From: Manihot esculenta
Taxonomy: Eukaryota; Streptophyta; Magnoliopsida; Malpighiales; Euphorbiaceae
Assembly: GCF_001659605.2 (NCBI RefSeq)
Contig: NC_035178.2
Span: 358,043 to 422,042 of the forward strand
Direction: 5' to 3'
Length of the DNA stretch: 64,000 bases
Shown here: piece after piece, positions 20,507-47,760 of the stretch
Layout of the letters: each line of letters starts with the position of its first letter
Numbering within the stretch: the first letter of the stretch is position 1
Position numbers and translations under genes: made by a program
The notes under the pieces: model-generated
Told to the model about the DNA's origin: nothing
What the model saw: only the letters and a program-made list of their open reading frames with translations
Databases searched by the model: none

Positions 20507-20611
20507 CCTGCTATACTCTCTGTGTACCTGTAAAACTCATACATGATCATACATTTTCTGTGAAAATAAAAACTCTTTGCTGAACCAAGGCTTAACCTGT
20601 GCATGCACTAT

Positions 20612-20682
20612 CTCTGTACTCTGTACTCTGTACTCTGTACTCTGTACTCTGTACTCTGTACTCTGTACTCTGTACTCTGTAC
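20612..20682 (+). repeat. (CTCTGTA)n heptamer repeat, about 10 units
   Basis: Perfect tandem heptamers inside the type B LTR. The duplicate at 43167-43230 has about 9 units, and the E3 LTR has a degenerate version near 32826-32865. Confidence 0.92.
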
Positions 20683-21158
20683 CCTTGACTAGAGCTTGCT
20701 CTAGATGGGTTAATTCATACCTGATAAGCCTGGTTTTTCACATACAGCAAAATATAGATACATATACCGATCATATACAAAACATACAATACTAAGTCAA
20801 GCACGTTTCTAACTTTATACACAACTATTACATCTCTTTCATAGTACATGTCCACTCTACACTATTACAATTCTCTTTATTCTTTCTGTACTCTGCTGGA
20901 CTGTCCCTGTACACTGTCCACTGAACCTGCAAAACTGGGGTTAAGGGAGTGGGATGAGCTCTATAGCCCAGTGAGTAGAACAATAAAACAGTTCAGTAAA
21001 TATGATCTCATGGAATGCACCATATCACAGACAATCCACATCAAGAGTAAAGCTGTCACCACATAGTCCCAGTAACTCTGTGCCAGGGCGTAGAATCGAG
21101 CACCTGGTCTTCCTGTCATATAGATATATGTGTATATAACACCTCTGTACTTACCATT

Positions 21159-21270
21159 GCCAGGGCATAGTCAAAGGCTCCTGGACTTTGCTATACCTGC
21201 CAGGGCGTAGTCAAAGGCTCCTAGACTTCTCTATACCTGCCAGGGCGTAGTCAAAGGCTCCTGGACTTCC
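21159..21270 (+). repeat. Three 40-bp tandem units in LTR type B
   Basis: Units begin GCCAGGGC(A/G)TAGTCAAAGG at 21159, 21199 and 21239. The same three-unit array is at 33321-33432 and 43707-43818, and in reverse orientation at about 35590-35700. Other LTR subfamilies carry related units with different counts. Confidence 0.88.
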
Positions 21271-22722
21271 TGTCTGAGACTATTGGATCATTCATCATTC
21301 ACTCACAACACCAAATAACGATGCAATGCAACATATTCGTGGATATTAATGCAATCAACCTATGGCATAATCATGATGCATGAGATATGCTAAAACATTC
21401 CATTGTGCAAGTAAAAGAGTTAAGTTTAGTTCCACTCACCTCTGTACTAACTCTGCAGGCTCTGAACACTCTGGAGCAGAACTCACTGCTGCTCTCTCTG
21501 GTTCCTCTGGTGTGTACCTATACAGATGGACTCAAATGAGGGACCAAACTAGCTTATGAACAACTCTATTTAACTCCCCAAAAATCCCTTTAAACTCACT
21601 CTAACATTCATGCAAAGCATGCAAAGGAAAGTTGGATAGGACACTTTCGGCGGCAGGTTCGGCGGCTGAAAGTCCTCTCCAGAGACGAAACTCAAGCACC
21701 TTCGGCGGCCGAACTTCCACTTTCGGCTGCCGAACCCTTTCGGGGGCAAGTTTCGGAGGCCAAAAGGCACTCTAGAGACGAAAGTCTCTAACCTTCGGTG
21801 GCACCTTCGGCGGTCGAACTTCCCTCCAGAGCCGCAAGTCCAAAAGCTCGGGGGCAAGCGTAGGCAGCTGAAACCACCTCCTCACACCTCCTCAGCGGTT
21901 CGGCGGCCGAATGTACCTTCGGCTGCCGAACCTTAGTTCATCAGCAGGGCAGAAACTTGCCCTGCCTCTCGCCCAATGCACAAAACTCACTCCACTTCAC
22001 ACACCTCAATCCTTCCACTTGCATACACTCATGTATATGCTCAAAGGGGTCAAAAACTAGCTAAAAACCCCAAACACACAACACAAACAACACAAAAACA
22101 AGCTCTAAGCACAAAATCATCAAAACCTCACACATACCCCTATTCATGCATCTCTCTCTATAAACCCCATAAAACCTTCAGAAAACATAAAAACAAGCTC
22201 AGGATCTTCACTTACCTTGTGAAAACAAGTAGATGAACGATCCTAACGTGGAGTTTTGGAGCAACTTCCCTTCAAACTCTCCAAACTTCACAACTTGGAG
22301 TTTTTAGCTTAAAACCTTCAAAAGATCATAAAAACTAATCAAATCTTTGCATGATTTAATGAAAACATGCAGAAATACTCACAAAGGGCAGAGTTTCACC
22401 TCAGCAAGTGAAAGAAACGGTGCTCTACCGCTTCAACCGACTGAGGGCCATTTATAGGTGGCTGGCCAGACCACCTTCGGCGGCCACACGTGAAATCGAA
22501 AGCCATGCATGTTCAGCGGCCGAACCTCAACTTCGGCGGCCGAACCTGGCTTTTCTGCCTTGGTTCATTTCACTCAAAAACTCATTTCCTTTATGCTTAA
22601 AACTTCATGAACATAGCAAAACATTGAAGCAAAACATAAATCTCACCCTTCTAGCGACTTCCAACACCTTGAACTCCACTGAAAAGTAGAATTCTGATGC
22701 CGGACTCTAGCCGGATATTACA

Positions 22723-23128
22723 ATTACAATTGAGGAGCGAGCTGAGGATGTGCAGTCTGCGGGGGCTGAGGTAGCCCCTACTTCTGAAGATGTTCCTCGG
22801 GGGGAAATCGAGGTCGCTCCAACCGAGGAAAGGGCTTTTGAGGGTGGAGGTGAGATCATCTTAGTAGGCGAGGGCGCCCTAGAAATTGAAGCCGAGGTCG
22901 TTCCTATTGGCGGGGGCACCTCTAAAGAGGGGGTCAAATGCAAATCTATTCTTGCGGTTTCTCGCCAAAAGAAGACCTCGACTGCCAGAGGTGTCGTTGC
23001 TAAGGAGACCGCTAACAAGCGGGCTCTTCCTTCAGATGCTCCTGCTGTAGCTCCTGCCCCTAAGAAGGCTCGTGCTTCCAAACAGCCGGCCCCATCTCTG
23101 CCCCCCTTGAGAAAGAGAAGGCTTCCGT
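22723..23128 (+). pseudogene. Reading frame X, copy 1: acidic repeat protein fragment
   Basis: Open from about 22729 to 23133 without a good ATG at its left edge. It encodes an acidic stretch with a loosely repeated motif (AEVAPTSEDVPRG, IEVAPTEERAFEGG, AEVVPIGGGTSKEG), then a basic Ala/Pro/Lys tail (KKARASKQPAPSLPPLRKRR). Both ends are cut by LTR insertions (type B on the left, type D at 23129), so it is an internal piece of a larger gene. The style resembles the middle part of plant gypsy-type transposon proteins; the family is unproven. Copy 2 at 45271-45676 differs by an Arg-to-Cys change near the end. Confidence 0.45.
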
Positions 23129-24892
23129 TGTAATACCCGGCGAGAGTCCGGCATCAGAATTCTACTTTCCGGTGGAATCTCAGATGTCAGAATCCTCTAG
23201 AAGGGTAAGCTTTATGTTTTTGTAAAGGATTTTAGTATGTTTCAATGTTTTAAGTCCAAAAGGAAATGAATTTGTGAAAGAAAAGAGCCAAGGAAGAAAG
23301 GCAAGGTTCGGCCGCCGAAGGTGAAAGTTTGGCAGCCGAACATGCATGAGTTTGGGTTTCACGTTAGGCCGCCGAAGGTGGTCTGGCAAGCCACCTATAA
23401 AAGGCCCTAGGTCGGTGAATGAATAAGATTTTCTTTCCATTCACAGACAGAGGTGAGATCATGATCTTCCTTGGGTGATTTTCATGTTTTCTTCAAATCT
23501 TGTAAAGTTTTGATGAGTTTTATGTTGTTTTGAAGCTTTGGAGCAAATTAACCAAAAGTTTTGCAGTTGGAGACTTTGAGGGAGAGTTTCTCCATATCTC
23601 CACGTTGGGATCGTTTATCTTCTTGTTTCTAAGAGGTAAGTGAAGATCCTGAACTTCGTTTGATGATTGATGCAAGTTTTATGGGTAGAGATGTATGTTT
23701 AGGTTTAGTTGAGGTTTTGGTTGATTTGTGGTCAAAGCAAGCTTATGTGTTTAGTTGTGTTGTTTTTTGGGGTTTTAAGTTAGTTTTGGACCCCTTTGTG
23801 CCTATACTTGAGTATATGCAGGTTATGGAATTGTTGGTTGCATGTTTGAGTGGCGTTTGGGTTGGTTTGCATGAAGCAGAACACGTTTCTGCCTTACTGG
23901 AGAATCCAGTTTCGGCCGCCGAAAGAAGGTTCGGCCGCCGAACATGCTAAGGAGGTGGTTTTGGCTGCCGAAGCTTGCCCAAGCTTGCCCCCGAAAGTTT
24001 GGACTTTCGGCTCTGGAGGAGGGTTTCGGCCGCCGAAGGTGCCGCCGAAGGTTAGGGACTTTCGTCTCTGGAGAGGACTTTCGGCAGCCGAAGTGCCACC
24101 GAAAGTGCTTGAGTTTCGTCTCTGGAAGGGACTTTCAGCCGCCGAACCTGCCGCCGAAAGTGCCCTATCCAGCCTTCTTTTGCATGTTTTTCTTGATTCT
24201 TTTAGGATGTTTTAGGGGGGTTTTGGGGAGTATTCTAGAGGTGTTCTTGAGTTAGTGTGATCCCTCATTTGAGTCCACCTGTGTAGGAACGGACCAGAGG
24301 AACCGAAGAGAGCAGCAGTGAGCACTGCTTCAGAGTCAGCTCAGAGTCAGCCAGAGGTGAGTGGAACTAAACTTCATGTTTTAAATTGAGAAATTAAATG
24401 CTTTGAGCATGTTCTATGCATCATGATATGTAATAGGTTGAGTGCACTAGAATACACTAATGTGACTCATTGCATTATTCTATGCTTGTACGGATCGAAC
24501 ATAGTTGTGGATTCACTAGCCCTCCGAGTAAAGTCCTGAGGAGCCCTGAGAGGGCCGGGCACAGAGCACCATAAGGTGCATAGAGAAGTCCTGAGTAGCT
24601 CCTTCGCGGGTCGGGCACAGACAGAGGGAATTTTGAATCTGTCCAACTGAGATGGGTGATTTACTTGTGATGTGATGCGATTTCCGATTGGTATATCTGT
24701 TTGTTTTAACGGTTAAGTCTGGTAGTTTTACAGAAACAGATGAAAAAGTTAGTAGTCGAGTCGGATCATGTATGGGATGTTTGGAGTTCAGGTTAGGCTT
24801 TCTACGGGTTCTGGCGGCCTTAAGCCGATTCGGATCCTAGCGCCGAGCAGTTTGGGCCGTTACAGAGAGGTACCGGTTTCCGGGCTGTTACA
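23129..24892 (+). mobile_element. Hybrid 5' LTR, type D start and type C end (1764 bp)
   Basis: The first 1550 bases match the LTR at 45677-47223 (TGTAATACCCGGCGAGAGTC start, palindrome clusters 23305-23375 and 23908-24160, TATA-like CCTATAAAAGG at 23394-23404, donor-like AAGAGGTAAG at 23631-23640). From 24679 the sequence instead matches 37650-37862 (GATTTCCGATTGGTATATCTG onward) and ends GGGCTGTTACA. About 330 bases with the acceptor-like site are missing compared with either parent. A primer site follows, so the hybrid serves as the 5' LTR of the element at 24893-27011. The preceding TCCGT (23124-23128) is the expected left target duplication of type D. Confidence 0.85.
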
Positions 24893-24894
24893 GA

Positions 24895-24906
24895 TGGTAT
24901 CAGAGC
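24895..24906 (+). other. Primer binding site, initiator Met tRNA type
   Basis: TGGTATCAGAGC two bases after the hybrid LTR end; it marks the start of the internal region. Confidence 0.9.
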
Positions 24907-25163
24907 ATAGGTTCCTCAAGAGTACGGTGTGTGATCAAGGATGAGAAATCCCACATCGGAAAGAGGTTGATTCAATCATAGAAAGGCAAGCACAATAAGT
25001 AAAATCATGTCCACTAGGTTGTTAAGTTTTGTTTTGCATGATGATGTGAAATGCCATGATGTATGCTATGCATGTATATGTTATATGTTCATGTGTCTTT
25101 CATATGAACTATATGTGTGCTAATGTTTGTCTATTTGTGTTTTGTGTTTTCAGAAGAGCTAAG

Positions 25164-25751
25164 ATGAGTGGTGTTAGTCCTCAGATTGATTCAGATCCGT
25201 CTGAAGGGTCTTTTGGTGAAAGCAGGGAAGGAATGGATCTAGGGAGAGTAGTCGGAGATAGGAAAGAGATGGAAGTGGATGTGCAGAAAAGGGAGGTAGG
25301 TTTACAGGTGAATATGGAGGAAGAGTCTTTAGCGGATAAGGATTCCAAGATTTCAGGTATAGGAGAGAATGATCCCTCTACGTGGAGTACAGCTACCTTA
25401 AAAGGAGTGAAATGGGGAAGCACTAGCAAGAAAAAGGTCAGAGGTCTTAGAAGGTCAAAGAAACAGGAGTGGGGTAGGACTAGGAAGGGCAGGTTGTGGA
25501 AGCGATGGAGACTAGCATGTGTGAGATGTGGAAGGCTGCATAAGGGAGTCTGTCTTGCAGGGACAACAGCTTGTTTTACGTGCGGACAGGAAGGGCACAT
25601 AGCACGTGAGTGTCCTACTGCGCCTTGGATGGCTCAGTCCCAGCGGACATTGTCAGGTAGAGCTAGTCAGCAGGAGGCAGCCACACCAGACTCAGTGGTT
25701 CCAGGTATGTTCACTTTTGATGTGATTGTTTTGTGGATTTTAGTAGAGTAG
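25164..25751 (+). pseudogene. Shortened Tekay-like gag lacking the core domain
   Basis: The start ATG at 25164 follows an acceptor-like TTTTCAG (ending 25153), as in the other gag genes. The N-terminus is charged (MSGVSPQIDSDPSEGSFGES). The Tyr/Pro-rich zone and the YLKLDAP-type gag core are missing, and the frame passes quickly to a basic stretch (SKKKVRGLRRSKKQEWG) and the paired zinc knuckles (CVRCGRLHKGVC and [14 protein letters not shown]). It then drifts into unrelated sequence and stops at 25749. The missing core implies an internal deletion. Confidence 0.75.
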
Positions 25752-26997
25752 TGGTTGCTGTGAGAGTAGCCGAGGATGTCAGAGTAAGTGAGATAGCTTC
25801 AAGTAAGAGGAAGTGCAGAAAGAGAGGAGAGCCGGTCTGGGAAGAGGTGGTAGTTGAGGCAGAGAAAAGGGTCAGTCTTTTCTTCAGTCAATTCCCGAGG
25901 GAAGTTCCGTTAGCCTTAGCTTGGATCTTCACCCTGATTTCATAGGAGGCTAACACATCAACACAGTGACGTCAGATAAGTTCATTTGGAAGTGTTTGGA
26001 TGTGTATGCTATTTGTTTTGGACCCTAGTGTTTCGCTTTCCTTGTTGTTTGTGAGCCGTTGATAGGATGGGTTTGATGACTTCTGGGCTTAGCGAGTTTG
26101 CTTTGGGTTGGTAGACCCGAGTGTGATCCATCTGTGGCAGAGTCAGTCTGTCGGTTCAGTTCAGTATATGTTGAGAGTAGTGGATGCAATCCAGCTGACC
26201 TTATGGTTCTAGAGTTGACTGGTGATGTCATTCTAGGGCGGATTGGCTAGCTACTCATGGTACTACCTGTGTCTGCAGAGACAAGGTAGGAGAGTTCAGC
26301 GTTTAGAAGCTAGGATGGATCAGAGTGAGTCCTTAGAGAGGACAGAGTATAGGTGCCTAGAAGTTCGTGTCAGCCCCTCAGGCTCATCGTTTTTCTGGAA
26401 AGGTTGTTGGAGGGTTTTAGCTCTTGTGAGCAAGTTTAGTAGTCAGGGCAGGGAATCAGCCTCAGTGCCTGTTGCTAGTGAGTACTAGATGTTTCCCAGG
26501 CGAGCTGTCAGGTTTACCATCTGTCAGGGAGTCAGAGTATGGGATAGGAGTGGTGTCTGGATGCGGAACCATTTCTTTCCTTCCCCTACAGGATGGCACC
26601 TGCAGAGAAAGAGAGAGAGAGTAAGGGTAGTACAGAGGCTTGGTAGCTAAGGATTTTATCTGACTTAGTACCTCACCCTGGAATGTTCCAGAGTTGTTGT
26701 GGGAAACGACGGATGATCCTTGAGACTGTTATCGTACTATAAGTGGTGACTAGGTATTCCTAGTTAGGATTGATCTTTTAGAGCTGATTATGGTTTTCCT
26801 AAGATCAAAGATTTGAGTATCACCTGATGAGAGTTAGAATGTGAAAATTAGAAGAGAGAGAAGTGAAGAAAAGATAATGAGAAAAAGGATAAGGATCAGA
26901 GTGCGCAGCGGAAGTTATGGAATTCAGACATAGGCTAAGGTCTTGCTTGTTTGTTTCTTTGTTTGTTTTGTTTTTACATTCGAGGACGAATGTTTTT
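25752..26997 (+). pseudogene. Decayed protease and RT remnant
   Basis: Fragments of protease can be followed in changing frames (WVDPSVIHLWQ-like for [13 protein letters not shown], then VILGRIG-like for VILGMDW near 26225-26250, then [12 protein letters not shown] remnants near 26370). The linker tail with a YRMAP codon run is near 26590 and a STSPW-like remnant near 26675. The rest of RT, RNase H and integrase are absent before the polypurine tract. It has many small indels, unlike the other copies, so this is an older or non-autonomous element. Confidence 0.65.
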
Positions 26998-27011
26998 AAA
27001 GGAGGGAAGAT
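26998..27011 (+). other. Polypurine tract before the type C 3' LTR
   Basis: AAAGGAGGGAAGAT directly before TGTAATACCC, preceded by the conserved CATTCGAGGACGAATG inverted repeat (26979-26994). Confidence 0.8.
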
Positions 27012-27813
27012 TGTAATACCCGGCTAGATCAGGCATCGGAATTCTTACCGTCCGGTGGGCTTTGAGGATGTTGAACCTGTCTAGAAGGGTAAGAGAATAG
27101 TTGTCTAACATGTTTTTACGGTTTTAAAGGTTTTGAATGAGTTTTGGCTTGAGTTTTGAAGAGAACGGACTGTGGGGACTTTTGCCATGTTCGGCCGCCG
27201 AAGGTAATGTTCGGCCGCCGAAAGTGCTATAGATTCGGCTTTCGAAGGTCATGTTCGGCCCCCGAACGTTGCATGGTTTTGCATGCAGGTTTGGCTGCCG
27301 AAGGTGAGTCGGCCAGCCCTCTATATCAGCGCCTCCAGTCGGTGAAATGGATAGATTTCACTTTCCTTTCACTTCCTGAGGTGAGGCCACGTCTCCATGA
27401 GTCACTTGCTTGGTTTTGTCAAAGGTTGTAAAGGTTGAAAGAGTTGTTTTGTGGTTTTGAAGGGTTAAAGGCAAAAAGAGAAGTGGTGAAGGTTGGAGAA
27501 GGTGTAGGTCATATCTTTCAGGTCAGATCGTTCAGCTTCTTGTTATCAAGAGGTAAGTGAAGCTTCTGAGTTTCTGTTGAGGATTTATAGAGGTTTTCTT
27601 GAGGTTATGGGTAGAAATGCATATGTAGGGTTGAAGTATGTTTTTTGGTGTTTTGATGATGAAAGTATGTTTATGTGTTATGCTTGTTCTTTGTGTTGGG
27701 GTTTATAGGTAGGTTGGGACCCCTTTGAACATATACTGGAGTATATGTGCGTTGAGGAGGTGAAGTATGCATGGTTAGAGAGGTGGAAGAATGGAGGAGC
27801 TAGGTTGCGGGTG
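27012..27813 (+). mobile_element. Type C 3' LTR, left part (802 bp)
   Basis: Starts TGTAATACCCGGCTAGATCAGG. Palindrome cluster about 27187-27306, TATA-like CTATATCAG near 27321, donor-like AAGAGGTAAG at 27548-27557. It stops without an LTR end at 27813, where minus-strand pol begins. The sequence fits directly onto 36373-37862 (GAGTTCTTGAAGAACTCAGG onward); the two parts together give about 2.29 kb, a normal LTR length. So 27814-36372 is a block inserted in this LTR. Confidence 0.8.
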
Positions 27814-30800
27814 ATACGACACATTTTCGATCCTCTACAACACCTCAAAGGGTCCAATGTACCGTGGAGCCAATTTACCTTTCTTTCCAAAACGAACCAC
27901 TCCTTTCATTGGAGACACTTTTAGCAATACCCAATTACCCTCTTGAAACTCTAACTGCTTTCTGCGAACGTCTGCATAACTTTTCTGTCTACTCTGAGCT
28001 GTTCTGATTCTCTCTCTGATCATGGGCACCATTCTACTGGTAATGTCTACTAACTCTGGCCCTGCAAGAGCCTTCTCTCCTACCTCTTCCCAGCAAACAG
28101 GGGATCTGCACTTCCTCCCATACAAAGCTTCATAAGGAGCCATCCCGATGCTCGCATGATGGCTGTTATTGTAGGCAAACTCCACCAAAGGTAGATGCTG
28201 CCTCCAAGAACCGCCAAAGTCTAACACACATAGTCGAAGCATATCCTCTATGGTCTGGATGGTCCTTTCTGACTGTCCATCAGTCTGTGGGTGGAAAGCA
28301 GTACTAAAATCCAATCTCGTGCCCATCGCACTTTGCAGACTCCGCCAAAAGCGGGAGGTAAACTGAGGTCCTCTGTCTGAAACTATAGACACTGGAACTC
28401 CATGTAATCTCACTATCTCATCCAGATAGACCTGTGCCAACTTATCCACAGAATAGTTACTCCGTACTGGAAGAAAATGAGCAGATTTCGTAAGTCTGTC
28501 CACAATCACCCATATCGAGTCTATCCTGTTGGACGCTACTGGTAAACCCACTACAAAATCCATGGCTATGTTCTCCCATTTCCACTCTGGAATCGGTAAT
28601 GGGTTAAGCATTCCGGCTGGTTTCTGATGCTCTAATTTCACCCTCTGACAAACCTCACAAGCTGTCACGAACTGCGCCACTTCTTTCTTCATGGCTGGCC
28701 ACCAATAGACCCTTTTCAGAGCCTGATACATCTTGGTGGCTCCTGGGTGAACACTATACCTCGCATTATGAGCTTCCCTCATAATGTCTTCCTTCACACT
28801 GCCCCTATCTGGTACACAAAGTCGACTCCCATAGCGAAGGATCCCTTTGCTGTCAAATCTGAACTCTACACTATTGCCTGACTGAACAGTCCTGGCAATT
28901 TTCATCAACTCAGGGTCCTCATGCTGTCTCTGAGCTATCTGCTCCAGAAACACAGGTGTCACTCTCATCTGTGCTATCAACACACCTGTACCAGACAACG
29001 CTAACTGTAATCCCTCGTCAAAGAGCTTATAAAGCTCCATCACAACTGGTCTCCGCTCTGCTGCTATATGGGATAAACTGCCTAGTGACTTCCGGCTTAG
29101 GGCGTCTGCGACAACATTTGCCTTACCCGGATGATACTGGATTTTACAATCATAATCACTGAGCAATTCAACCCACCTTCTCTGCCGCAAATTCAGCTCT
29201 CTCTGACTTAAGATGTACTGTAAACTCTTATGATCGGTGAAGATCTCGCATTTCACCCCATAGAGGTAATGCCGCCACATCTTAAGTGCAAAGATAACTG
29301 CTGCCATCTCTAGGTCATGGGTAGGGTAATTCAACTCGTGCTTCTTCAACTGTCTAGAAGCATAAGCTATTACTCTATCACTCTGCATCAATACACAACC
29401 CAATCCCACTCGAGATGCATCACAGAACACTGTGAACTCTTCATTACTGACAGGCAGAGCTAACACTGGTGCTGTTGTCAATCTCCTCTTGAGCTCCTCA
29501 AAGCTCTCTTCACACTGGTCTGACCAGATAAACTTCTGGTTCTTCTGAGTCAATTTGGTCATAGGAGCTGCTATCTTTGAGAAGTTCTGAACGAACCTCC
29601 TGTAGTAACCTGCCAGTCCCAGAAAGCTTTTAATCTCAGTCACTGTCGTGGGTCTGGGCCAGTTAGCTACAGCCTCTATCTTCTTGGGGTCTACCTCAAT
29701 ACCCTCTGCTGATACCACATGTCCCAAAAAGGCAATGCTCCGTAACCAAAACTCACACTTCGAGAACTTGGCATATAAACCATGCTCTCGCAGTGTCTGC
29801 AGAACAATCCTCAGATGCTGGGCATGCTCCTCTGCATTTCTGGAATACACTAAGATATCATCGATAAACACAATGACAAAGTGATCCAGAAACTCACTGA
29901 ATACCCTGTTCATGAGATCCATAAATGCTGCAGGGGCGTTAGTCAACCCAAACAGCATCACTAAGAACTCATAATGCCCATATCTGGTTCGGAAAGCTGT
30001 CTTAGGCACATCTGCCTCTCTGACTCTCAACTGATGATACCCAGATCTCAGATCTATTTTTGAGAAACAACCTGCTCCAGCTAGCTGGTCAAATAGATCA
30101 TCAATCCGAGGTAAGGGATACCTATTCTTGATAGTGACCTTGTTCAACTGTCTGTAGTCGATACAAAGTCTGAGGGATCCATCCTTCTTTCTGACAAAGA
30201 GCACTGGAGCACCCCAAGGTGAGGTACTAGGGCGGATGAAACCCTTATCTACCAAGTCCTGCAACTGTTCTTTCAACTCTGTTAACTCAGCTGGCGCCAT
30301 CCTGTAGGGAGGAATAGAGATAGGTCTGGTACCTGGCAGTAATTCAATTTCAAACCCTATCTCCCTATCAGGTGGTAGTCCTGGCAAATCGTCTGGGAAC
30401 ACATCGAGAAACTCTCGGACTACTGGTACTGTGGCTGGTTCCCTCACTTGACTGTCTAGCTTTCTCACATGAGCTAGAAACCCCTGACAACCCCTCCTAA
30501 GCAAACGACGAGCCTGAAGGGCTGAAATCAGACCTCTGGGTGTACCTCTCCTGTCTCCTCTGAAGACACACTCTGACCCATCCTGGTCTCTGAGACTCAC
30601 TAGCTTCTCTCGACAGTCCAACGTAGCACTATATGTAGATAACCAATCCATCCCTAGAATGACATCAAAATCCGTCAAATCTAGAACCACAAGGTCAGCT
30701 GGAAGGTATCTACCTTCGATAAACACTGGACTGAAACGACAGACTGACACTGCCACTGATGGGTCACATCTAGGTCCACTGACCCAGAGAGGATACTCTA

Positions 30801-31386
30801 ACTCAGAACTGATCAAACCCAATCGCTCTATGGCTCTCGAAGCAATAAAGGAATGAGAAGCACCGGGGTCCATCAAAGCATACACATCTGAACACCCAAT
30901 GATGAAATTACCTGACACCACTGTGTTCGACGTGTTAGCCTCCTCCTGTGTCACTGTGAAAATCCGTGCTGGGGCTACCGGATTTCCACCTCGGGAACCT
31001 GCTGCTGAAGTAGAGGCTGCCCCTCTCCCTCTACCTCTGCCACTACTCTGAGGCATGACTGGAGCTGCTGGCCATACAACTGGCTGTACCACACTGCCTG
31101 AACTCATCTGCTGGGATGGTGCAAAAGTCATCTGCGGACAATCCCGAGCAATATGCCCTTCCTGTCCACATCGAAAACAAGCTGTAGATCCCAACCGACA
31201 AACTCCGCCATGTGGTTTTCCGCATCTTCTGCAGACTGGAGCTGTGCCAGAGCTTGAGCCACTACCTATTCCCAGACCTGACTTCACTTTACTCCAGAAC
31301 TTACTCTTTGTTCCTTTTGCTCTATCCCATCGTTTACTGCCTGGCGTGGGGGCTTTAGAACCCGAAGCCTGTGCCTTTGACTGATT
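27814..31386 (-). pseudogene. E3 Tekay-like zinc knuckle-protease-RT-RNase H-integrase
   Basis: One frame on the minus strand, with 1150 codons open from 31287 to 27835. Counted from the Met at 31287: zinc knuckles 19-50, protease MDPGAS 139-144, RT with [10 protein letters not shown] near 375 and FIDD 474-477, RNase H CDAS near 623, DLEMAA near 658 and TDHKSL near 685. Integrase has D910, D971 and E1007 (the D-X35-E spacing) and the HHCC finger before it. The conserved MPFGLTN motif reads MLFGLTN, so one RT residue is altered. A TAG at 27835 (CAG in E2) ends the frame, and soon after the sequence breaks into LTR C at 27813, so the integrase tail and chromodomain are lost. Confidence 0.9.
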
Positions 31387-32424: not shown

Positions 32425-32630
32425 CTTTACTCTGGAAACACAACATATAACATACCACTTTAGCACATAAACATCACATATCAATCATACACATATAACA
32501 CTCATGGCATATCATAGCAGATAGGACTCAAGACCCTATCCTAGTGGACATGATTTCCTATGGTGCTTGACCACTTCTAACCTGTCTGAGCCCAACACTG
32601 TCTCTATAGGTCCGATCATGTGAACCTAGG

Positions 32631-32642: not shown

Positions 32643-32645
32643 ATC

Positions 32646-36372: not shown

Positions 36373-37862
36373 ACTGAGTTCTTGAAGAACTCAGGTTCGG
36401 CAGCCGAAGGTGCATTCGGCCGCCGAACCCCTTGAGAGGTGGCTTTGGTTGCCACATTTCACCCTTGAGAGCTTTGAGGTTCGGCTCTGTTTGGGGGATT
36501 CGGCCGCCGAAGGTGCCGCCGAAGGTTAGAGACTTTCGTCTCTGGAGTGTGTTTTGGCCCCCGAACCTTGCCCCCGAAAGGGTTCGGCAGCCGAAAGTGG
36601 AGTTTCGGCCGCCGAAAGTATGCGAGTTTCGGCTCTGGACAGGACATTCGGCCGCCGAATGTGTTTTGTCTAGCTTTTCTTTTGCATGCTTTATGTGATT
36701 GTTCTAAGAGCTTTTAGTGGGGTTTTTGGAAGTTGTTTAAGAGTTGTGTATGAGTTGTTTCGAGTGTGTTTGACACCTCATGCGAGTCCATTTGTGTAGA
36801 ATTGGACCCTAGAGACCGAGGAGGTCATCAGTGGTAGGTGTTGCAGAGTCAGTTCTCAGTTGTCTGCTAGAGGAGCAGAGGTGAGTAGAATTAAACTTAA
36901 TCTTTTATACTGAGAAAATGGAATGCTTGAGCATAGTTCATGCATCATGACTGCCATGTTATGTACTAGGGTGATTGCATTAGAATCACGAATATGGTGC
37001 ATTGCATTATTTACTGATAGTGGGGATTGGACCAAGGCGACATCAATAGCCCACGATCTGTCATGGCAGTGAAAATCCTGTGTGAGTTCCTACGGGAATC
37101 GGGTGCCGACAGAGGGAGTTTTCAGGTCATGTCTAATCCGGGATGTGAAATGTTTGTGTTGTGCCCCATTCATGTAGGTGGTGTGTATTAATGACCAGTT
37201 TTTCAGTGTTTCTACTCACTGGGCTTTAGAAGCTCATCCCATTCCCTTAATCCCAGTTTTGCAGGTCCAGAGTAGCTGGGAAGGGCAGAAGCAGCAGAGT
37301 GTTGGTTAAAGGACTGCATGAGAAATAGTTTAGTGTGGACATGATGTAACTTAAAGAGATATATGTAAAGACATGTAATAGATAGTAAGGTCGTATGATA
37401 TGGTTTAGAATGTGCTTTGCCTAGTGTGTGCTTTATCCCTTGTGTATGCATGTATCCTGTTTTCAGTTTCTTGATAAAAAATGAGTCAAACCAGGCTTAA
37501 TAGATGTTGTGTTGCGAAAACTCCAGTGAATTTAACTGTGAGGGAAGACAGGGTTTGATTCCCTTGACCCAAGACCAGACCGTGAGGGAAGATCGGGTTT
37601 GAGTCCCGTGACTCTACGGACAGAGTTACTGGTGTAGGCCCTGGGGGCGATTTCCGATTGGTATATCTGTTTGTTTTAACAGTTAAGTCTGGTAGTTTTA
37701 CAGAAACAGATGAAAAAGTTAGTAGTCGAGTCGGATCATGTATGGGATGTTTGGAGTTCAGGTTAGGCTTGCTACGGGTTCTGGCGGCCTTAAGCCGATC
37801 TGGATCCTAGCGCCGAGCAGTTTGGGCCGTTACAGAGAGGTACCGGTTTTCGGGCTGTTACA
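36373..37862 (+). mobile_element. Type C 3' LTR, right part (1490 bp)
   Basis: Continues the LTR begun at 27012. Palindrome cluster about 36400-36660, acceptor-like CCCAGTTTTGCAGGTCC (37248-37267) and terminus TTTTCGGGCTGTTACA at 37862. It interrupts the E2 pol just after codons for the chromodomain motif ETRESML; TGGAG at 37863-37867 is the expected target duplication, but its partner is not visible because the 5' LTR of this element is a recombinant. Confidence 0.85.
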
Positions 37863-39586
37863 TGGAGCATAGACTCCCGCGTCTCCCAGGTGCACTCTTC
37901 TAGATTATGGTGGTTCCACAGGACTTTCACCATCGGAATCTCCTTGTTCCTTAACTGTCTGATCTGTGTGTCCAGAATCCGTACTGGCTGCTCTATATAG
38001 GTGAGATCTGTAAGAATCTCCACCTCAGGTTCACTCAGAACCTGATTCGGATCTGACACAAATTGTCGTAGCATAGAAACATGAAATACCAGGTGAATTC
38101 TCGCCATAGAAGCGGGTAAATTCAGCTTATACGACACATTTCCGATCCTCTGCAAAATCTGAAAGGGTCCAATGTATCGTGGAGCTAATTTACCCTTCTT
38201 CCCGAAACGAACCACTCCTTTCATTGGAGACACTTTTAGCAATACCCAATTACCCTCCTGGAACTCTAACTGCTTTCTGCGAACGTCTGCATAACTTTTC
38301 TGTCTACTCTGCGCTGTTCTGATTCTCTCTCTGATCATGGGCACCACTCTACTGGTAATCTCTACTAACTCTGGCCCTGCAAGAGCCTTCTCTCCTATCT
38401 CTTCACAACAAATAGGGGATCTGCACTTCCTCCCATACAAAGCTTCATAAGGAGCCATCCCTATGCTAGCATGATGGCTGTTATTGTAGGCAAACTCCAC
38501 CAAAGGTAGATGCTGCCGCCAAGAACCGCCAAAGTCTAACACACACAGTCGAAGCATATCTTCTATGGTCTGGATGGTCCTCTCTGACTGTCCATCAGTC
38601 TGTGGGTGGAAAGCAGTGCTAAAATCTAATCTCGTGCCCATCGCACTCTGCAGACTTTGCCAAAATCTGGAGGTAAACTGAGGTCCTCTGTCTGAAACGA
38701 TAGACACTGGAACTCCATGTAATCTCACTATCTCATCCAGATAGACCTGTGCCAACTTATCCACAGAATAGTTACTCCGAACTGGAAGAAAATGAGCAGA
38801 TTTCGTGAGTCTGTCCACAATCACCCAAATAGAGTCTATCCTATTGAACGCTGCTGGTAAACCCACTACAAAATCCATGGCTATGTTTTCCCATTTCCAC
38901 TCTGGAATCGGTAATGGGTTAAGCATTCCGGTTGGTTTCTGATGCTCTAGTTTCACCCTTTGGCAAACCTCACAGGCTGTCACAAACTGCGCCACTTCTT
39001 TCTTCATGGCTGGCCACCAATACACCTTTTTCAGATCCTGGTACATCTTGGTGGCTCCTGGGTGAACACTATACCTCGCATTATGAGCTTCCCTCATAAT
39101 GTCTTCCTTCACACTGCTATCTGGTACACAAAGTCGACTCCCATAGCGAAGGATCCCTTTGCTATCAACTCTGAATTCTGCACTGTTGCCTGACTGAACA
39201 GTCCTGGCAATTTTCATCAACTCAGGGTCCTCATGTTGTCTCTGCGCGATCTGTTCCAGAAACACAGGTGTCACTCTCATCTGTGCTATCAATGCACCTG
39301 TACCAGACAACTCTAACTGTAACCCCTCTTCTAAGAGCTTGTAAAGCTCCATCACGATTGGTCTCCGCTCTGCTGCTATATGGGATAAACTGCCTAGTGA
39401 CTTCCGGTTTAGGGCGTCTGCCACAACATTCGCCTTACCCGGATGATACTGGATCTTACAATCATAATCACTGAGCAATTCGACCCATCTTCTCTGCCTC
39501 AAATTCAGCTTTCTCTGACTCAAGATGTACTGTAAACTCTTATGATCGGTGAAGATCTCGCATTTAACCCCGTAGAGGTAATGCCG
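37863..39586 (-). pseudogene. E2 Tekay-like RNase H end, integrase and chromodomain part
   Basis: In frame with 39587-42757. It encodes the RNase H tail (FTDHKSLQ), connection, the HHCC finger ([17 protein letters not shown]), the integrase core ([24 protein letters not shown]) and the [11 protein letters not shown] domain, and is cut at 37863 within [11 protein letters not shown] by LTR C. The last residues of the chromodomain-like tail are lost. The conserved WEEVGE motif reads CEEIGE here. Confidence 0.9.
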
Positions 39587-41395
39587 CTACATCTTAAGTG
39601 CAAAGATAACTGCTGCCATCTCTAGGTCATGGGTGGGGTAATTCAACTCGTGCTTCTTCAACTGTCTAGAAGCATAAGCTATTACCCTATCACTCTGCAT
39701 CAAAACACAACCCAAGCCCACTCGAGATGCATCACAGAACACTGTGAAATCCTCATTACTGACAGGCAGAGCTAGCACTGGTACTGTTGTCAATCTTCGT
39801 TTGAGCTCCTCAAAGCTCTCTTCACATTGGTCTGACCAGATAAACTTCTGGTTCTTCTGAGTCAGTTTGGTCATAGGAGCTGCTATCTTTGAGAAGTTCT
39901 GAACGAACCTCCTGTAGTAACCTGCCAGTCCCAGAAAGCTTTTAATCTCAGTCACTGTCGTGGGTCTGGGCCAGTTAGCTACAGCCTCTATCTTCTTGGG
40001 ATCTACCTCAATACCCTCTGCTGATACCACATGTCCCAAAAAGGCAATGCTCCTCAACCAAAACTCACACTTCAAAAACTTGGCATATAAACCATGCTCT
40101 CTCAGTGTCTGCAGAACTATTCTCAGATGCTGGGCATACTCCTCTGCATCTCTGGAATACACTAAAATATCATCGATGAAAACAATGACAAAGTGATCCA
40201 GAAACTCACTGAACACTTTGTTCATGAGATCCATGAATGCTGCAGGGGCGTTAGTCAACCCGAACGGCATCACTAAGAACTCATAATGCCCATATCTAGT
40301 TCTGAACGCTGTCTTTGGCACATCTGCTTCTCGAACTCGCAACTGATGATATCCGGATCTCATATCTATTTTAGAGAAACAACCTGCTCCAGCTAGCTGG
40401 TCAAATAGATCATCAATCCTAGGGAGAGGATACCTATTCTTGGTAGTGACCTTGTTCAACTGTCTGTAGTCGATACAAAGTCTGAGGGATCCATCCTTCT
40501 TTCTGACAAAGAGCACTGGAGCACCCCAAGGTGAGGTACTAGGGCGGATGAAACCCTTATCTACCAAATCTTGCAACTGCTCTTTTAACTCTTTTAACTC
40601 TGCTGGCGCCATCCTGTAGGGAGGAATAGAGATAGGTCTGGTATCTGGCAGCAAGTCTATTTCAAACTCTATCTCCCTGCCAGGTAGTAGTCCTGGAAGT
40701 TCGTTTGGAAAAACATCGAGAAACTCTCGGACTACTGGTACTGTAGCTGGTTCCCTAACCTGACTGTCTAGCTCTCTCACATGAGCTAGAAACCCCTGAC
40801 AACCCTTCCTAAGCAAACGACGAGCCTGAAGGGCTGAAATCATACCTCTGGGTGTACCTCTCCTGTCTCCTCTGAAGACACACTCTGACCCATCCTGATC
40901 TCTGAGACTCACTATCTTCTCTCTACAGTCCAAAGTAGCACTATATGCAGATAGCCAATCCATCCCTAGAATGACATCAAAATCTGTCAAGTCTAGAACC
41001 ACAAGGTCAGCTGAAAGGCATCTACCCTCTATAAACACTGGACTGAAACGATAGACTGACACTGCCACTGATGGGTCACATTTAGGTCCACTGACCCAGA
41101 GAGGATACTCTAACTCAAAACTGATCAAACCCAATCTCTCTATGGCTCTCGAAGCAATAAAGGAATGAGAAGCACCGGGGTCCATCAAAGCATACACATC
41201 TGAACACCCAATGATGAGATTACCTGACACCACTATGTTCGACGTGTTAGCCTCCTCCTGTGTCACAGTGAAAATCTGTGCTGGGGCTACCGGATTTCCA
41301 CCTCGGGAACCTGCTGCTAAAGTAGAGGCTGCCCCTCTCCCTCTACCCCTGCCACTACTCTGAGGCATGACTGGAGCTGCTGGCTGAACAACTGG
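39587..41395 (-). pseudogene. E2 Tekay-like protease-RT-RNase H
   Basis: Between in-frame stops at 41396 and 39587. It holds the Gly/Arg-rich linker ([12 protein letters not shown]), protease MDPGASHSF and [10 protein letters not shown] with [29 protein letters not shown] and [11 protein letters not shown], and RNase [10 protein letters not shown] and DLEMAAV. It ends at ALKM, where TGG of the next Trp codon is TAG. All RT motifs are intact. Confidence 0.9.
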
Positions 41396-42217
41396 CTATA
41401 CCACACTGCCTGAACTCATCTGCTGGGATGGTGCATAAGTCATCTGCGGACAATCCCGAGCAATATGCCCTTCCTGTCCACATCGAAAACAAGCTGTAGA
41501 TCCCAACCGACAAACTCCGCCATGTGGTTTTCCGCATCTTCTGCATACTGGAGCTGTGCCAGAGCTTGAGCCACTACCAAATCCCAGACCTGACTTGACT
41601 TTACTCCAGAACTTACTCTTTGTTCCTTTTGCTCTATCCCATCTCTTACTGCCTGAAGTGGGGGCTTTAGAACCCGAAGCCTGTGCCTTTGACTGTTTCT
41701 GACTATTGGCACTAGCTTCCATTTTCCTGGCTGCGTCTACTATAGTGTGGAAACTCTCCTTTTCTGCTGGAAGAATCAAGGAAGAATACCTGGGATGCAA
41801 TCTCATAGTATATCGCCTTGCCTTCTTCTGGTCAGTATCATAGGCTTGACCCACGTACTGAAGCAAATCCAGGAACTTATCTGTGAATTCATCAACACTC
41901 ATCTCATCTGTCTGTCTCAACTGTTCAAACTCTATTACTTTCATCTCCCTAGAACTGTCAGGAAAAGCCCACCCTGCAAACTCATTGGCGAACTCTCCCC
42001 TAGACATGCTGGTCATCCTGGGTTCCACATAATTCTTAAACCATTCTCTGGCCTTCTTGCATTTAAGTGTAAACCCCGCCATCTCAATGGCTCTCCTATC
42101 ATCTGCTCCCAATTCACTGGTTATCATTCTAACTGCTCTGAGGTAATCAAATGGATCATCTTCCGTGTTATATTTAGGAGCATCCAATTTCAAGTACTCC
42201 GTCATGTGCACTTTACC
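41396..42217 (-). pseudogene. E2 Tekay-like gag core and zinc knuckles
   Basis: Gag core from MTEYLKLDAPKYNTEDDPF through KKAREWFKNYVEPR, then a basic linker, an atypical knuckle [12 protein letters not shown] and a canonical [14 protein letters not shown]. It ends at TAG 41396 where E3 has CAG (SVVQPVV). Confidence 0.88.
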
Positions 42218-42757
42218 TCAAGATGAGCTAGGTTGATGTCGGTCAACAACAGGGGCTACTGGTTCTGGTGGTGGTACTGGGTCATTTGGCTTTGGGTGTG
42301 CTGCACTGAGATGGGTAGGAGAGGGTGGATACATAGGATATGCTGGGTAATAAGGAGGATAAGGCATATATGGCATGTAAGGAGGATATGGGACAAAACT
42401 CGAGTACTCCGACATACCTCCCATCGGATACTCTAGATCCTGCGAAAAAGCTGGATGGCCAAAACCGGAGGCCTGAGCGCCTCCCTGCGACTCTCCCATA
42501 CCTTCCTCAAATCTGCCTATACCCATGCTGTCATCTCTAGACTAATCAATCTCTATTGCCTCCCTCCTTTCCTCTGATCTTTCTCCTCTTGCTGTTCCCC
42601 TTCTGCTCTCGTCTACAGACCTTCTAGGGTCTATTGACGTACCTTCCCTGCTAGATCTCTGAGACCTTGCCCTCGGCAATGCAGGAGGACGAGCAGCTGG
42701 TCTCTCACTATCTGGTGGGACTCCAGTCAATCGAGCTGATCGACGAGTTCCTTTCAT
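42218..42757 (-). pseudogene. E2 Tekay-like gag N-terminus
   Basis: Starts MKGTRRSARL at 42757, nine bases after a minus-strand acceptor-like TTTTTCAG. Stops at 42542 (CAG to TAG, from E3 IDQSRDD) and 42218 (GGA to TGA, a transversion and the only exception seen) break the Tyr/Pro-rich part. The frame is otherwise continuous with the core. Confidence 0.85.
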
Positions 42758-42971
42758 CTTTACTCACTGAAAAACAACACATAACATAGCACTTTAGCAC
42801 ATAAACAACACATATCAATAATGCACATGCAAAACTCATGGCATATCATAGCAGTAACCAGATAGGACTCAAGACCCTATCCTAGTGGACATGATTTCCT
42901 ATTGTGCTTGACCACTTCTAACCTCTATGAGCCCGACACTTTCTCTATAGGTCCGATCATATGAACCTAGG

Positions 42972-42983
42972 GCTCTAATACCA
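42972..42983 (-). other. Primer binding site of E2, one base changed
   Basis: The minus strand reads TGGTATTAGAGC, one C-to-T change from the usual TGGTATCAGAGC. It lies three bases from the LTR end at 42987. Confidence 0.85.
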
Positions 42984-42986
42984 ATC

Positions 42987-45270
42987 TGTAACGACCCCAA
43001 AATGGACCGTCACCGGCTCTAGGATTCAGGTCGGCTTAAGGCCGCCAGAACCCGTAGCAAGCCTGCTATACTCTCTGTGTACCTGTAAAACTCATACATG
43101 ATCATACATTTTCTGTGAAAATAAAAACTCTTTGCTGAACCAAGGCTTAACCTGTGCATGCACTATCTCTGTACTCTGTACTCTGTACTCTGTACTCTGT
43201 ACTCTGTACTCTGTACTCTGTACTCTGTACCCCTGACTAGAGCTTGCTCTAGATGGGTTAATTCATACCTGATAAGCCTGGTTTTTCACATACAGCAAAA
43301 CATAGATACATATACCGATCATATACAAAACATACAGTACTAAGTCAAGCACGTTTCTAACTTTATACACAACTATTACATCTCTTTCATAGTACATGTC
43401 CACTCTACACTATTACAATTCTCTTTATTCTTTTTGTACTCTGCTGGACTGTCCCTGTACACTGTCCACTGAACCTGCAAAACTGGGGTTAAGGGAGTGG
43501 GATGAGCTCTATAGCCCAGTGAGTAGAACAGTAAAACAGTTCAGTAAATATGATCTCATGGAATGCACCATATCACAGACAATCCACATCAAGAGTAAAC
43601 CTGTCACCACATAGTCCCAGTAACTCTGTGCCAGGGCGTAGAATCGAGCACCTGGTCTTCCTGTCATATAGATATATGTGTATATAACACCTCTGTACTT
43701 ACCATTGCCAGGGCGTAGTCAAAGGCTCCTGGACTTTGCTATACCTGCCAGGGCGTAGTCAAAGGCTCCTGGACTTCTCTATACCTGCCAGGGCGTAGTC
43801 AAAGGCTCCTGGACTTCCTGTCTGAGACTATTGGATCATTCAGCATTCACTGACAGCACCAAATAACGATGCAATGCAACATATTCGTGGATACTAATGC
43901 AATCAACCTATGGCATAATCATGATGCATGAGATATGCTAAAACATTCCATTGTGCAAGTAAAAGAGTTAAGTTTAGTTCCACTCACCTCTGGACTGACT
44001 CTGCAGGCTCTGAACACTCTGGAGCAGAACTCACTGCTGCTCTCTCTGGTTCCTTTGGTCTGTACCTATACAGATGGACTCAAATGAGGGACCAAACTAG
44101 CTTATGAACAACTCTATTTAACTCCCCAAAAATCCCTTTAAACTCACTCTAACATTCATGCAAAGCATGCATAGGAAAGCTGGACAGGACACTTTCGGCG
44201 GCAGGTTCGGCGGCCGAAAGTCCTCTCCAGAGACGAAACTCAAGCACCTTCGGCGGCCGAACTTCCACTTTCGGCTGCCGAACCCTTTCGGGGGCAAGTT
44301 TCGGAGGCCAAAAGGCACTCCAGAGACGAAAGTCTCTAACCTTTGGCAGCACCTTCGGCGGTCGAACTTCCCTCCAGAGCCACAAGTCCAAAAGCTTGGG
44401 GGCAAGCTTAGGCAGCTGAAACCACCTCCTCACACCTCCTCAGGGGTTCGGCGGCTGAATGTACCTTCGGCTGCCGAACCTGAGTTCATCAGCAGGGCAG
44501 AAACTTGCCCTGCCTCTCGCCCAATGCACAAAACTCACTCCACTTCACACACCTCAATCCTTCCACTTGCATACACTCATGTATATGCTCAAAGGGGTCA
44601 AAAACTAGCTAAAAACCCCAAACACACAACACAAACAACACAGAAACAAGCTCTAAGCACAAAATCATCAAAATCTCACACATACCCCTATTCATGCATC
44701 TCTCTCTATAAACCCCATAAAACCTTCAGAAAACATAAAAACAAGCTCAGGATCTTCACTTACCTTGTGAAAACAAGTAGATGAACGATCCTAACGTGGA
44801 GTTTTGGAGCAACTTCCCTTCAAACTCTCCAAACTTCACAACTTGGAGTTTTTAGCTTAAAACCTTCAAAAGATCATAAAAACTAATCAAATCTTTGCAT
44901 GATTTAATGAAAACATGCAGAAATACTCACAAAGGGCAGAGTTTCACCTCAGCAAGTGAAAGAAATAGTGCTCTACCGCTTCAACCGACTAAGGGCCATT
45001 TATAGGTGGCTGGCCAGACCACCTTCGGCGGCCACAAGTGAAACCGAAAGCCATGCATGTTCGGCGGCCGAACCTCAACTTCGGCGGCCGAACCTGGCTT
45101 TTCTGCCTTGGTTCATTTCACTCAAAAACTCATTTCCTTTATGCTTAAAACTTCATGAACATAGCAAAACATTGAAGCAAAACATAAATCTCACCCTTCT
45201 AGCGACTTCCAACACCTTGAACTCCACCGGAAAGTAGAATTCTGATGCCGGACTCTAGCCGGATATTACA
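42987..45270 (-). mobile_element. E2 5' LTR (2284 bp, type B)
   Basis: Ends are TGTAACGACCCC at 42987 and GGATATTACA at 45270, followed by the ATTAC target duplication (45271-45275). Palindrome clusters are at about 44190-44480 and 45022-45095, heptamers at 43167-43230 and 40-bp units at 43707-43818. It is almost identical to the solo LTR at 18518-22722. Confidence 0.93.
43167..43230 (+). repeat. (CTCTGTA)n heptamer repeat, about 9 units
   Basis: Same array as 20612-20682 with about one unit fewer. Confidence 0.9.
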
Positions 45271-45676
45271 ATTACAATTGAGGAGCGAGCTGAGGATGTG
45301 CAGTCTGCGGGGGCTGAGGTAGCCCCTACTTCTGAAGATGTTCCTCGGGGGGAAATCGAGGTCGCTCCAACCGAGGAAAGGGCTTTTGAGGGTGGAGGTG
45401 AGATCATCTTAGTAGGCGAGGGCGCCCTAGAAATTGAAGCCGAGGTCGTTCCTATTGGCGGGGGCACCTCTAAAGAGGGGGTCAAATGCAAATCTATTCT
45501 TGCGGTTTCTCGCCAAAAGAAGACCTCGACTGCCAGAGGTGTTGTTGCTAAGGAGACCGCTAACAAGCGGGCTCTTCCTTCAGATGCTCCTGCTGTAGCT
45601 CCTGCCCCTAAGAAGGCTTGTGCTTCCAAACAGCCGGCCCCATCTCTGCCCCCCTTGAGAAAGAGAAGGCTTCCGT
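45271..45676 (+). pseudogene. Reading frame X, copy 2
   Basis: Same acidic repeat and basic tail as 22723-23128, open to 45681, with Cys in place of Arg in KKA(R/C)ASK. It lies between the ATTAC duplication of E2 and the LTR start at 45677 (preceding TCCGT). Function unknown; probably a fragment of an older transposon protein. Confidence 0.45.
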
Positions 45677-47760
45677 TGTAATACCCGGCGAGAGTCCGGC
45701 ATCAGAATTCTACTTTTCGGTGGAATCTCGGATGTCAGAATCCTCTAGAAGGGTAAGCTTTATGTTTTTGTAAAGGATTTTAGTATGTTTTAATGTTTTA
45801 AGTCCAAAAGGAAATGAATTTGTGAAAGAAAAGAGCCAAGGAAGAAAGGCAAGGTTCGGCCGCCGAAGGTGAAAGTTTGGCCGCCGAACATGCATGAGTT
45901 TGGGTTTCACGTTAGGCCGCCGAAGGTGGTCTGGCAAGCCACCTATAAAAGGCCCTAGGTCGGTGAATGAATAAGATTTTCTTTCCATTCACAGACAGAG
46001 GTGAGATCATGATCTTCCTTGGGTGATTTTCATGTTTTCTTCAAATCTTGTAAAGTTTTGATGAGTTTTATGTTGTTTTGAAGCTTTGGAGCAAATTAAC
46101 CAAAAGTTTTGCAGTTGGAGACTTTGAGGGAGAGTTTCTCCATATCTCCATGTTGGGATCGTTTATCTTCTTGTTTCTAAGAGGTAAGTGAAGATCCTAA
46201 ACTTCGTTTGATGATTGATGCAAGTTTTATGGGTAGAGATGTATGTTTAGGTTTAGTTGAGGTTTTGGTTGATTTGTGGTCAAAGCAGGCTTATGTGTTT
46301 AGTTGTGTTGTTTGTTGGGGTTTTAAGTTAGTTTTGGACCCCTTTGTGCCTATACTTGAGTATATGCAGGTTGTGGAATTGTTGGTTGCATGTTTGAGTG
46401 GCGTTTGGGTTGGTTTGCATGAAGCAGAACACGTTTCTGCCTTACTGGAGAATCCAGTTTCGGCCGCCGAAAGAAGGTTCGGCCGCCGAACATGCTAAGG
46501 AGGTGGTTTTGGCTGCCGAAGCTTGCCCAAGCTTACCCCCGAAAGTTTGGACTTTCGGCTCTGGAGGAGGGTTTCGGCCGCCGAAGGTGCCGCCGAAGGT
46601 TAGGGACTTTCGTCTCTGGAGAGGACTTTCGGCAGCCGAAGTGCCACCGAAAGTGCTTGAGTTTCGTCTCTGGAAGGGACTTTCGGCCGCCGAACCTGCC
46701 GCCGAAAGTGCCCTATCCAGCCTTCTTTTGCATGTTTTTCTTGATTCTTTTAGGATGTTTTAGGGGGGTTTTGGGGAGTATTCTAGAGGTGTTCTTGAGT
46801 TAGTGTGATCCCTCATTTGAGTCCACCTGTGTAGGAACGGACCAGAGGAACCGAAGAGAGCAGCAGTGAGCACTGCTTCAGAGTCAGCTCAGAGTCAGCC
46901 AGAGGTGAGTGGAACTAAACTTTATGTTTTAAATTAAGAAATTAAATGCTTTGAGCATGTTCTATGCATCATGATATGTAATAGGTTGAGTGCACTAGAA
47001 TACACTAATGTGACTCATTGCATTATTCTATGCTTGTACGGATCGAACATAGTTGTGGATTCACTAGCCCTCCGAGTAAAGTCCTGAGGAGCCCTGAGAG
47101 GGCCGGGCACAGAGCACCATAAGGTGCATAGAGAAGTCCTGAGTAGCTCCTTCGCGGGTCGGGCACAGACAGAGGGAATTTTGAATCTGTCCATCTGAGA
47201 TGGGTGATTTACTTGTGATGTGATGCATTCCATGTGAGCATGTTTTATGCACATGTTTTTAGTGTTCTACTCACTGGACTAGTATAGCTCATCCCTCTCC
47301 TTTAACCTCAGTCTTGCAAGTTCAGAAGTCAGGGGAAGTTCAGCTGAGTACAGGAAGAGTAAAAAGTTGTAATAGTTTAGTGTGGACATGTAATTTTGTC
47401 AAGAGATGTACTAGAATTGTGCTTGACCTAGTTGTGTTGTAAATCCCTTTTGTATACATGGTTTGTTTTATGTAAATATGTTATTGAAATGTTTTATGAG
47501 TATGATCACCAGGCTTAACATTGTATGAGTTTAACCCGTCTAGAGCAAGCTCTAGTAAGGGGTTTTATAGTACAGAGATAGTGCATGCACAGATTGAGCC
47601 TTGGTTCAGAGCATCAGTTTTATGTTTTTACAGAAAATGTTTGATCATGTATGAGATTTTACAGGATGCAGAGAGTATAGCAGGCTTGCTACGGGTCCCG
47701 GTGACCTTAAGTCGACCTGGATCCTAGCGCCGGTAGCGGTCCGATTTTCGGATCGTTACA
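45677..47760 (+). mobile_element. Type D 5' LTR (2084 bp)
   Basis: TGTAATACCCGGCGAGAG to TTTTCGGATCGTTACA. Palindrome clusters about 45853-45925 and 46456-46708, TATA-like CCTATAAAAGG at 45942-45952, donor-like AAGAGGTAAG at 46179-46188; the acceptor-like site reads CAGTCTTGCAAG near 47310, a weakened form. Followed by a primer site and gag. Confidence 0.92.

What the first reader, a model, noticed from the sequence alone, without database searches (positions are those of the whole stretch)
20507..47223. A 4.2-kb direct duplication with a hybrid LTR at its breakpoint: ectopic recombination between different elements
20507-24678 and 43062-47223 are nearly identical. Copy 1 carries E2's insertion site as a solo LTR (ATTAC on both sides), copy 2 has the full E2 with ATTAC on the right, and both share the flank ATTACAATTGAGG plus frame X and LTR D. 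In copy 1, LTR D switches at 24678/24679 to the end of LTR C, the LTR of the element that sits inside E2. A crossover between LTR D on a solo-LTR haplotype and LTR C on the E2 haplotype gives exactly this order. The switch is at non-aligned positions (about 330 bases lost), so short homology was used. A false join of two haplotypes in the assembly would look similar.
Basis: partly seen in the sequence, partly recalled or inferred. Interest (0 to 1): 0.78.

Follow-up and report, generated by a model that had tools for sequence, protein, structure and literature searches.

The report
Retrotransposon-bounded tandem duplication in cassava
A stretch of nested jumping-gene DNA in what is almost certainly the cassava genome was copied in tandem when the end of one element was joined to the end of another; it is a clean but ordinary example of how plant repeats get rearranged.

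Summary
20507-24678 and 43062-47226 are one locus present twice: 56 differences in 4,165 aligned bases plus one 7-base gap. In the window's own 640-Mb assembly only these two places match the whole query (40 of 27,619 candidates scored). Copy 1 has a solo LTR with ATTAC on both sides. Copy 2 has the right LTR and most of the inside of the same insertion (E2), with ATTAC on the right. Both share frame X and LTR D's insertion site. In copy 1, LTR D turns at 24678/24679 into the last 214 bases of LTR C, followed by C's primer-binding site. The join shares 2 bases, lies about 380-480 bases off the aligned position, and joins LTRs 64% alike there. End joining or template switching therefore fits better than a crossover between aligned LTRs. 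Two haplotypes are not needed: the solo LTR could have formed after the duplication. A contig length identifies the genome as cassava v8, reported as partially inbred. With a join lacking assembler-type overlap, an artefact is less likely but not excluded without reads. Duplication by unequal crossover between LTRs at ectopic positions is already described.

The parts
17800..18517 (-). LTR remnant of the older host element, ending GGGTATTAC; 18513-18517 is the left ATTAC of the solo LTR
18518..18597 (-). First 80 bases of the solo LTR (copy 1 of the E2 insertion); equals 42987-43066 with 2 differences in 80
18598..20506 (+). LTR inserted in the solo LTR, TSD CCTGC at 18593-18597 and 20507-20511; its start is replaced by 60 bases identical to 18518-18577
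20507..22722 (-). Rest of the solo LTR, 40 differences in 2,209 from E2's LTR
22723..23128 (.). Right ATTAC, A, and the 400-base frame-X fragment of an older repeat; 2 differences in 406 from copy 2
23129..24678 (+). LTR D part of the hybrid LTR, 14 differences in 1,550 from copy 2
24679..24892 (+). LTR C part of the hybrid LTR; GC at 24677-24678 is shared by both parents; 5 differences in 214 from 37649-37862
24893..27011 (+). Inside of element C: primer-binding site at 24895-24906, gag zinc-knuckle reading frame, polypurine tract at about 26998-27011; shortened
   Evidence: PBS and PPT motifs recognised from knowledge
27012..27806 (+). Left part of C's 3' LTR
27807..36372 (-). Insertion inside C's 3' LTR: truncated element E3 with rearranged LTRs
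36373..37862 (+). Right part of C's 3' LTR, source of the C sequence used for comparison
37863..42986 (-). E2 internal region; pol breaks off in the chromodomain where C was inserted
42987..45270 (-). E2's 5' LTR (copy 2)
45271..45676 (.). ATTAC, A and frame X, copy 2
45677..47760 (+). Complete LTR D followed by its own primer-binding site at 47764

Best explanation
Shown: one locus (E2 insertion site, frame X, LTR D) is present twice in direct order, and the copies are linked by an LTR whose front is LTR D at its own insertion site and whose end is LTR C followed by C's primer-binding site. Inferred: a broken or stalled LTR D on one chromatid or homologue was joined, through 2 bases of microhomology, to LTR C inside E2 on another copy of the locus, by end joining or replication template switching. 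This made a tandem duplication whose unit runs from C's LTR end through the right part of E2, frame X and D's front (24679-47226, 22.5 kb). The left copy of E2 is reduced to a solo LTR by ordinary LTR-LTR recombination, either before the join (on a second haplotype) or after it (same chromosome).
For: Same insertion junctions in both copies, and no other near-identical frame X in the genome. Six of 8 non-self frame-X loci were inspected and all six read on past both edges, so both edges are old insertion junctions. Outside CpG/CHG sites the divergence is even: 7 of 1,863 (LTR) against 7 of 1,654 (X plus D), p = 1.0. C's own LTR ends differ by 5 of 214 (interval 0.8-5.4%), against 16 of 1,956 for X plus D (0.5-1.3%), compatible with C being older than the duplication. 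E2's missing left end starts exactly at C. Join with a 2-base overlap at non-aligned positions.
Against: No reads were available. The copies differ by 0.8% (X plus D), or 1.3% overall, about what two cassava haplotypes differ by in print (1% in TME204, 1.4% in TME7, 98.85% aligned similarity between TME204 haplotypes). The raw rate differs between LTR and X plus D (Fisher p = 0.0065), and differences cluster weakly (76 of 2,000 permutations reach the observed density), although the excess sits in CpG and CHG sites. The C and X-plus-D intervals overlap, so the order of events is weakly supported. D's right end and frame X's outer halves were not found within 10 kb left and 20 kb right of the window.
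Confidence: 0.6

Rival explanations
1. Assembly artefact: two haplotypes of one locus, one with a solo LTR and one with full E2, were placed one after the other.
For: Copy divergence (0.8% X plus D, 1.3% overall) is in the range of printed haplotype divergence in cassava. A printed cassava HiFi assembly carries 2.4-3.0% k-mer false duplications. The repeats around the join are dense.
Against: A contig length identifies the genome as the v8 cassava assembly. Its source line AM560 is described as partially inbred, with heterozygosity an order of magnitude below 1%. The join has only 2 shared bases and skips 377 or 481 bases of aligned sequence, whereas a false overlap join needs a long shared stretch; the window holds no N.
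Confidence: 0.2
2. Crossover between LTR D on a solo-LTR haplotype and LTR C on an E2 haplotype as homologous partners, with the missing bases lost during or after the exchange.
For: Order, orientation and rough position within the LTR fit. Unequal crossovers between LTRs at ectopic positions giving segmental duplications are described (PMC2686159 passages).
Against: LTRs 64% alike at the join and no alignment at the switch. LTR-like sequence covers 34% of 24679-42986, 27% in this orientation, so an LTR at the second breakpoint is not surprising.
Confidence: 0.13
3. A larger segmental duplication of the whole locus came first; a deletion between D of the left copy and C of the right copy then made the hybrid LTR, and the left E2 became a solo LTR separately.
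For: A deletion with 2-base microhomology is the commonest kind of illegitimate recombination (general knowledge). Each step is ordinary.
Against: One step more than needed; the larger duplication has no other trace, and no second copy of the host LTR plus ATTAC is in the window.
Confidence: 0.07

Closest known systems
Segmental duplication and deletion by unequal crossover between LTRs at ectopic positions (maize p locus discussion, PMC2686159, passages)
   Same: Duplication bounded by an LTR whose two sides come from different elements; the two flanks of that LTR do not match each other.
   Different: Here the two LTRs belong to different subfamilies, 64% alike at the join, and the switch is not at aligned positions; it sits on a nested element inside another element.
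Solo LTR formed by intra-element recombination (PMC7251063 and PMC2686159, passages)
   Same: 18518-22722 has LTR ends and identical 5-base target duplications.
   Different: The full-length counterpart of the same insertion is kept in the second copy of the duplication.
Illegitimate recombination that trims plant LTR retrotransposons (Devos 2002, Ma 2004, Wicker 2003, as cited in PMC7251063, passages)
   Same: Short-homology join with loss of LTR sequence.
   Different: The usual outcome is a deletion; here the outcome is a duplication.

Membership tests
Solo LTR by intra-element recombination | One LTR with identical target duplications on both sides | tested here: met
   ATTAC at 18513-18517 and 22723-22727
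Solo LTR by intra-element recombination | Same site once held the whole element | tested here: met
   Copy 2 holds E2's LTR and internal region at the same ATTACAATTGAGG junction
Tandem duplication by unequal LTR recombination | LTR at the breakpoint is a hybrid of two insertions | tested here: met
   Left flank is D's insertion site, right flank is C's primer-binding site
Tandem duplication by unequal LTR recombination | Switch at aligned (homologous) positions of similar LTRs | tested here: not met
   D47226 aligns to C37167, C37649 to D47604; 444 of 698 identical
Microhomology-mediated join | Few shared bases at the join, sequence lost on both sides | tested here: met
   GC shared; 377 and 481 bases skipped
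Ty3/gypsy chromovirus (E2, E3) | gag, protease, RT, RNase H, integrase, chromodomain | tested here: inconclusive
   gag, protease and RT in E3 pieces, RNase H and integrase in an E3 piece, integrase and SH3 in an E2 piece; E2's Chromo match is broken and below the curated cut-off (19.6 against 25.1 bits)
False haplotype duplication | Half read depth over both copies | not testable with these tools
   No reads held

The most novel reading that the evidence does not exclude
The hybrid D/C LTR, the LTR flanked by both primer-binding site and polypurine tract at 32646-35376, the inverted 944-base LTR arms and the replaced LTR start at 18598 are products of one burst of template switching in this nested block, not separate slow events.
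Probability: 0.08. Interest if true: 0.5.

Novelty: new member of a known kind. Interest (0 to 1): 0.25.

Why it matters
It is an unusually legible fossil: target duplications, a solo/full pair of one insertion and a hybrid LTR let each step be named. It also shows that rearrangement between nested plant elements can join divergent LTRs with almost no homology, and that both copies then decay mainly at methylatable sites (27 of 37 polarised changes in the LTR are C>T or G>A). It does not change any general view.

Tried and rejected
Independent insertions: rejected, because frame X and both insertion junctions are shared and no third near-identical frame X was found. Hybrid LTR made by reverse transcription before insertion: rejected, because C's 3' LTR starts differently (27012 against 23129) and the hybrid's left flank is D's insertion site. 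Recent gene conversion of the solo LTR from another element: no sign; with six genome relatives (L003-L008) as outgroups, 23 of 40 differences are derived in copy 1, 14 in copy 2 and 3 are unclear. Solo LTR older than the rest because of its higher raw divergence (40 of 2,209 against 16 of 1,956, p = 0.0065): not supported once CpG and CHG sites are set aside (7 of 1,863 against 7 of 1,654).

Led nowhere: protein search with frame X found nothing at E <= 0.001. Frame X has no Pfam family at E <= 0.01. Flanks of six frame-X relatives matched only LTR-like places in the window and 30 kb of flank, hits over 60 bases listed. No LTR end followed by TCCGT was found in the 20 kb right of the window. 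Genome searches for the junction pattern and for LTR C and LTR D did not complete, so uniqueness of the join in the genome is not tested.

Full report
What the window is. The window is plant DNA packed with nested Ty3/gypsy LTR retrotransposons: LTR-like sequence covers 49% of it, and gag, protease, reverse transcriptase, RNase H and integrase domains are found. It lies at C18:358043-422042 of a 640,357,471-base assembly with 86 contigs. A gag relative named MANES_06G063050v8 sits on a cassava contig of 30,819,343 bases, exactly the length of contig C6 here, so I take the genome to be the Manihot esculenta v8 assembly. The passages I saw name AM560 v8.0 as the cassava reference and call AM560 partially in-bred (PMC8952263 passages).

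The duplication. 20507-24678 and 43062-47226 differ at 56 of 4,165 aligned bases plus one 7-base gap. The unit can be followed to the LTR end: 18518-18597 matches 42987-43066 with 2 differences in 80, interrupted in copy 1 by a later LTR insertion with CCTGC on both sides. Genome-wide, of 102 reported matches only two cover the whole query, both in the window; the next best are 91-93% and cover the E2 LTR only (40 of 27,619 candidates scored). Frame X belongs to a dispersed repeat: 40 matches were listed, of which only the two copies are near-identical and the other 38 are at most 82%. Six of the 8 non-self frame-X loci fetched were inspected. All six read on past both edges, and four of six carry ATTGA at the left edge. 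Both edges of frame X are therefore junctions of old insertions, shared by the two copies, which makes one locus present twice the only reasonable reading.

The solo LTR and E2. In copy 1 the LTR is flanked by ATTAC on both sides. In copy 2 the LTR 42987-45270 is followed by the same ATTACAATTGAGG and preceded by a primer-binding-site region and an antisense pol. E2's pol stops inside a chromodomain match (residues 513-551 of a 553-residue piece, profile 3-38 of 53, below the curated cut-off) exactly where element C ends. E2's left end and its second LTR are missing from the window, as a join to C predicts.

The join. Copy 1 reads D up to GATGTGATGC and then C from GATTTCCGATTGG; GC is shared. 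By alignment D47226 corresponds to C37167 and C37649 to D47604, so 377 bases of D or 481 of C are skipped; D and C are identical at 444 of 698 aligned positions there. The C part differs from C's 3' LTR at 5 of 214 bases and is followed by a primer-binding site and C's short inside, ending in a polypurine tract and the differently starting 3' LTR of C at 27012. That 3' LTR is split by an insertion of about 8.6 kb and resumes at 36373. Homologous recombination between LTRs this different, at non-aligned positions, is unlikely; end joining or template switching fits better. That the second breakpoint fell in an LTR is not remarkable: LTR-like sequence covers 34% of 24679-42986, 27% in the orientation needed.

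Timing. The raw rate is higher in the LTR part (40 of 2,209) than in X plus D (16 of 1,956), p = 0.0065, and differences cluster weakly (76 of 2,000 permutations). The excess lies in CHG (20 of 234) and CpG (13 of 112) sites; elsewhere it is 7 of 1,863 against 7 of 1,654, p = 1.0. Both copies carry private changes (23 and 14 of 40, 3 unclear), 27 of 37 being C>T or G>A. So the whole 4.2 kb looks equally old and no conversion patch is seen. C's LTR ends (5 of 214, interval 0.8-5.4%) are if anything older than the duplication (0.5-1.3%), but the intervals overlap.

Order of events.

Artefact. Against: a partially inbred source, no N in the window, and a join without the overlap an assembler needs. 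For: copy divergence is about what printed cassava haplotypes differ by (1% in TME204, 1.4% in TME7, 98.85% aligned similarity between the TME204 haplotypes), and a printed cassava HiFi assembly carries 2.4-3.0% k-mer false duplications (PMC8952263 and PMC9299708 passages). Reads are needed.

Literature. [quoted passage not shown] My searches were narrow, and I make no claim about this locus being absent from print. The finding is a well-preserved member of a known kind.

Noticed in passing
window 32646-35428: An LTR-like stretch of E3 has a primer-binding site on one side (32642) and a polypurine tract on the other (35377), with a partial second LTR start inside (34286-34813 against 34814-35376, 390 of 522 identical). 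This is the signature described for inter-element recombination.
   Followed up: partly
window 32646-33589 and 35429-36372: Inverted LTR arms of 944 bases, 99.5% identical, joined to 52 bases of an element's 3' end. Real rearrangement or assembly fold-back not settled.
   Followed up: partly
window 18598-20506: LTR insertion with a perfect 5-base target duplication whose two ends are both the LTR 3' end type (TGTAACG...CGTTACA); its start is 60 bases identical to the neighbouring 18518-18577, but the end at 36372 matches those 60 bases equally well.
   Followed up: partly
window 27800-27820: E3 is cut off in its SH3-domain region and fused to LTR C at TT/GCGGGT without its 3' LTR; the right end still has the LTR terminus, followed by ACTGA.
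   Followed up: partly
window 57738-58297: LTR with a large internal deletion (560 bases), still followed by a primer-binding-like sequence.
   Followed up: no
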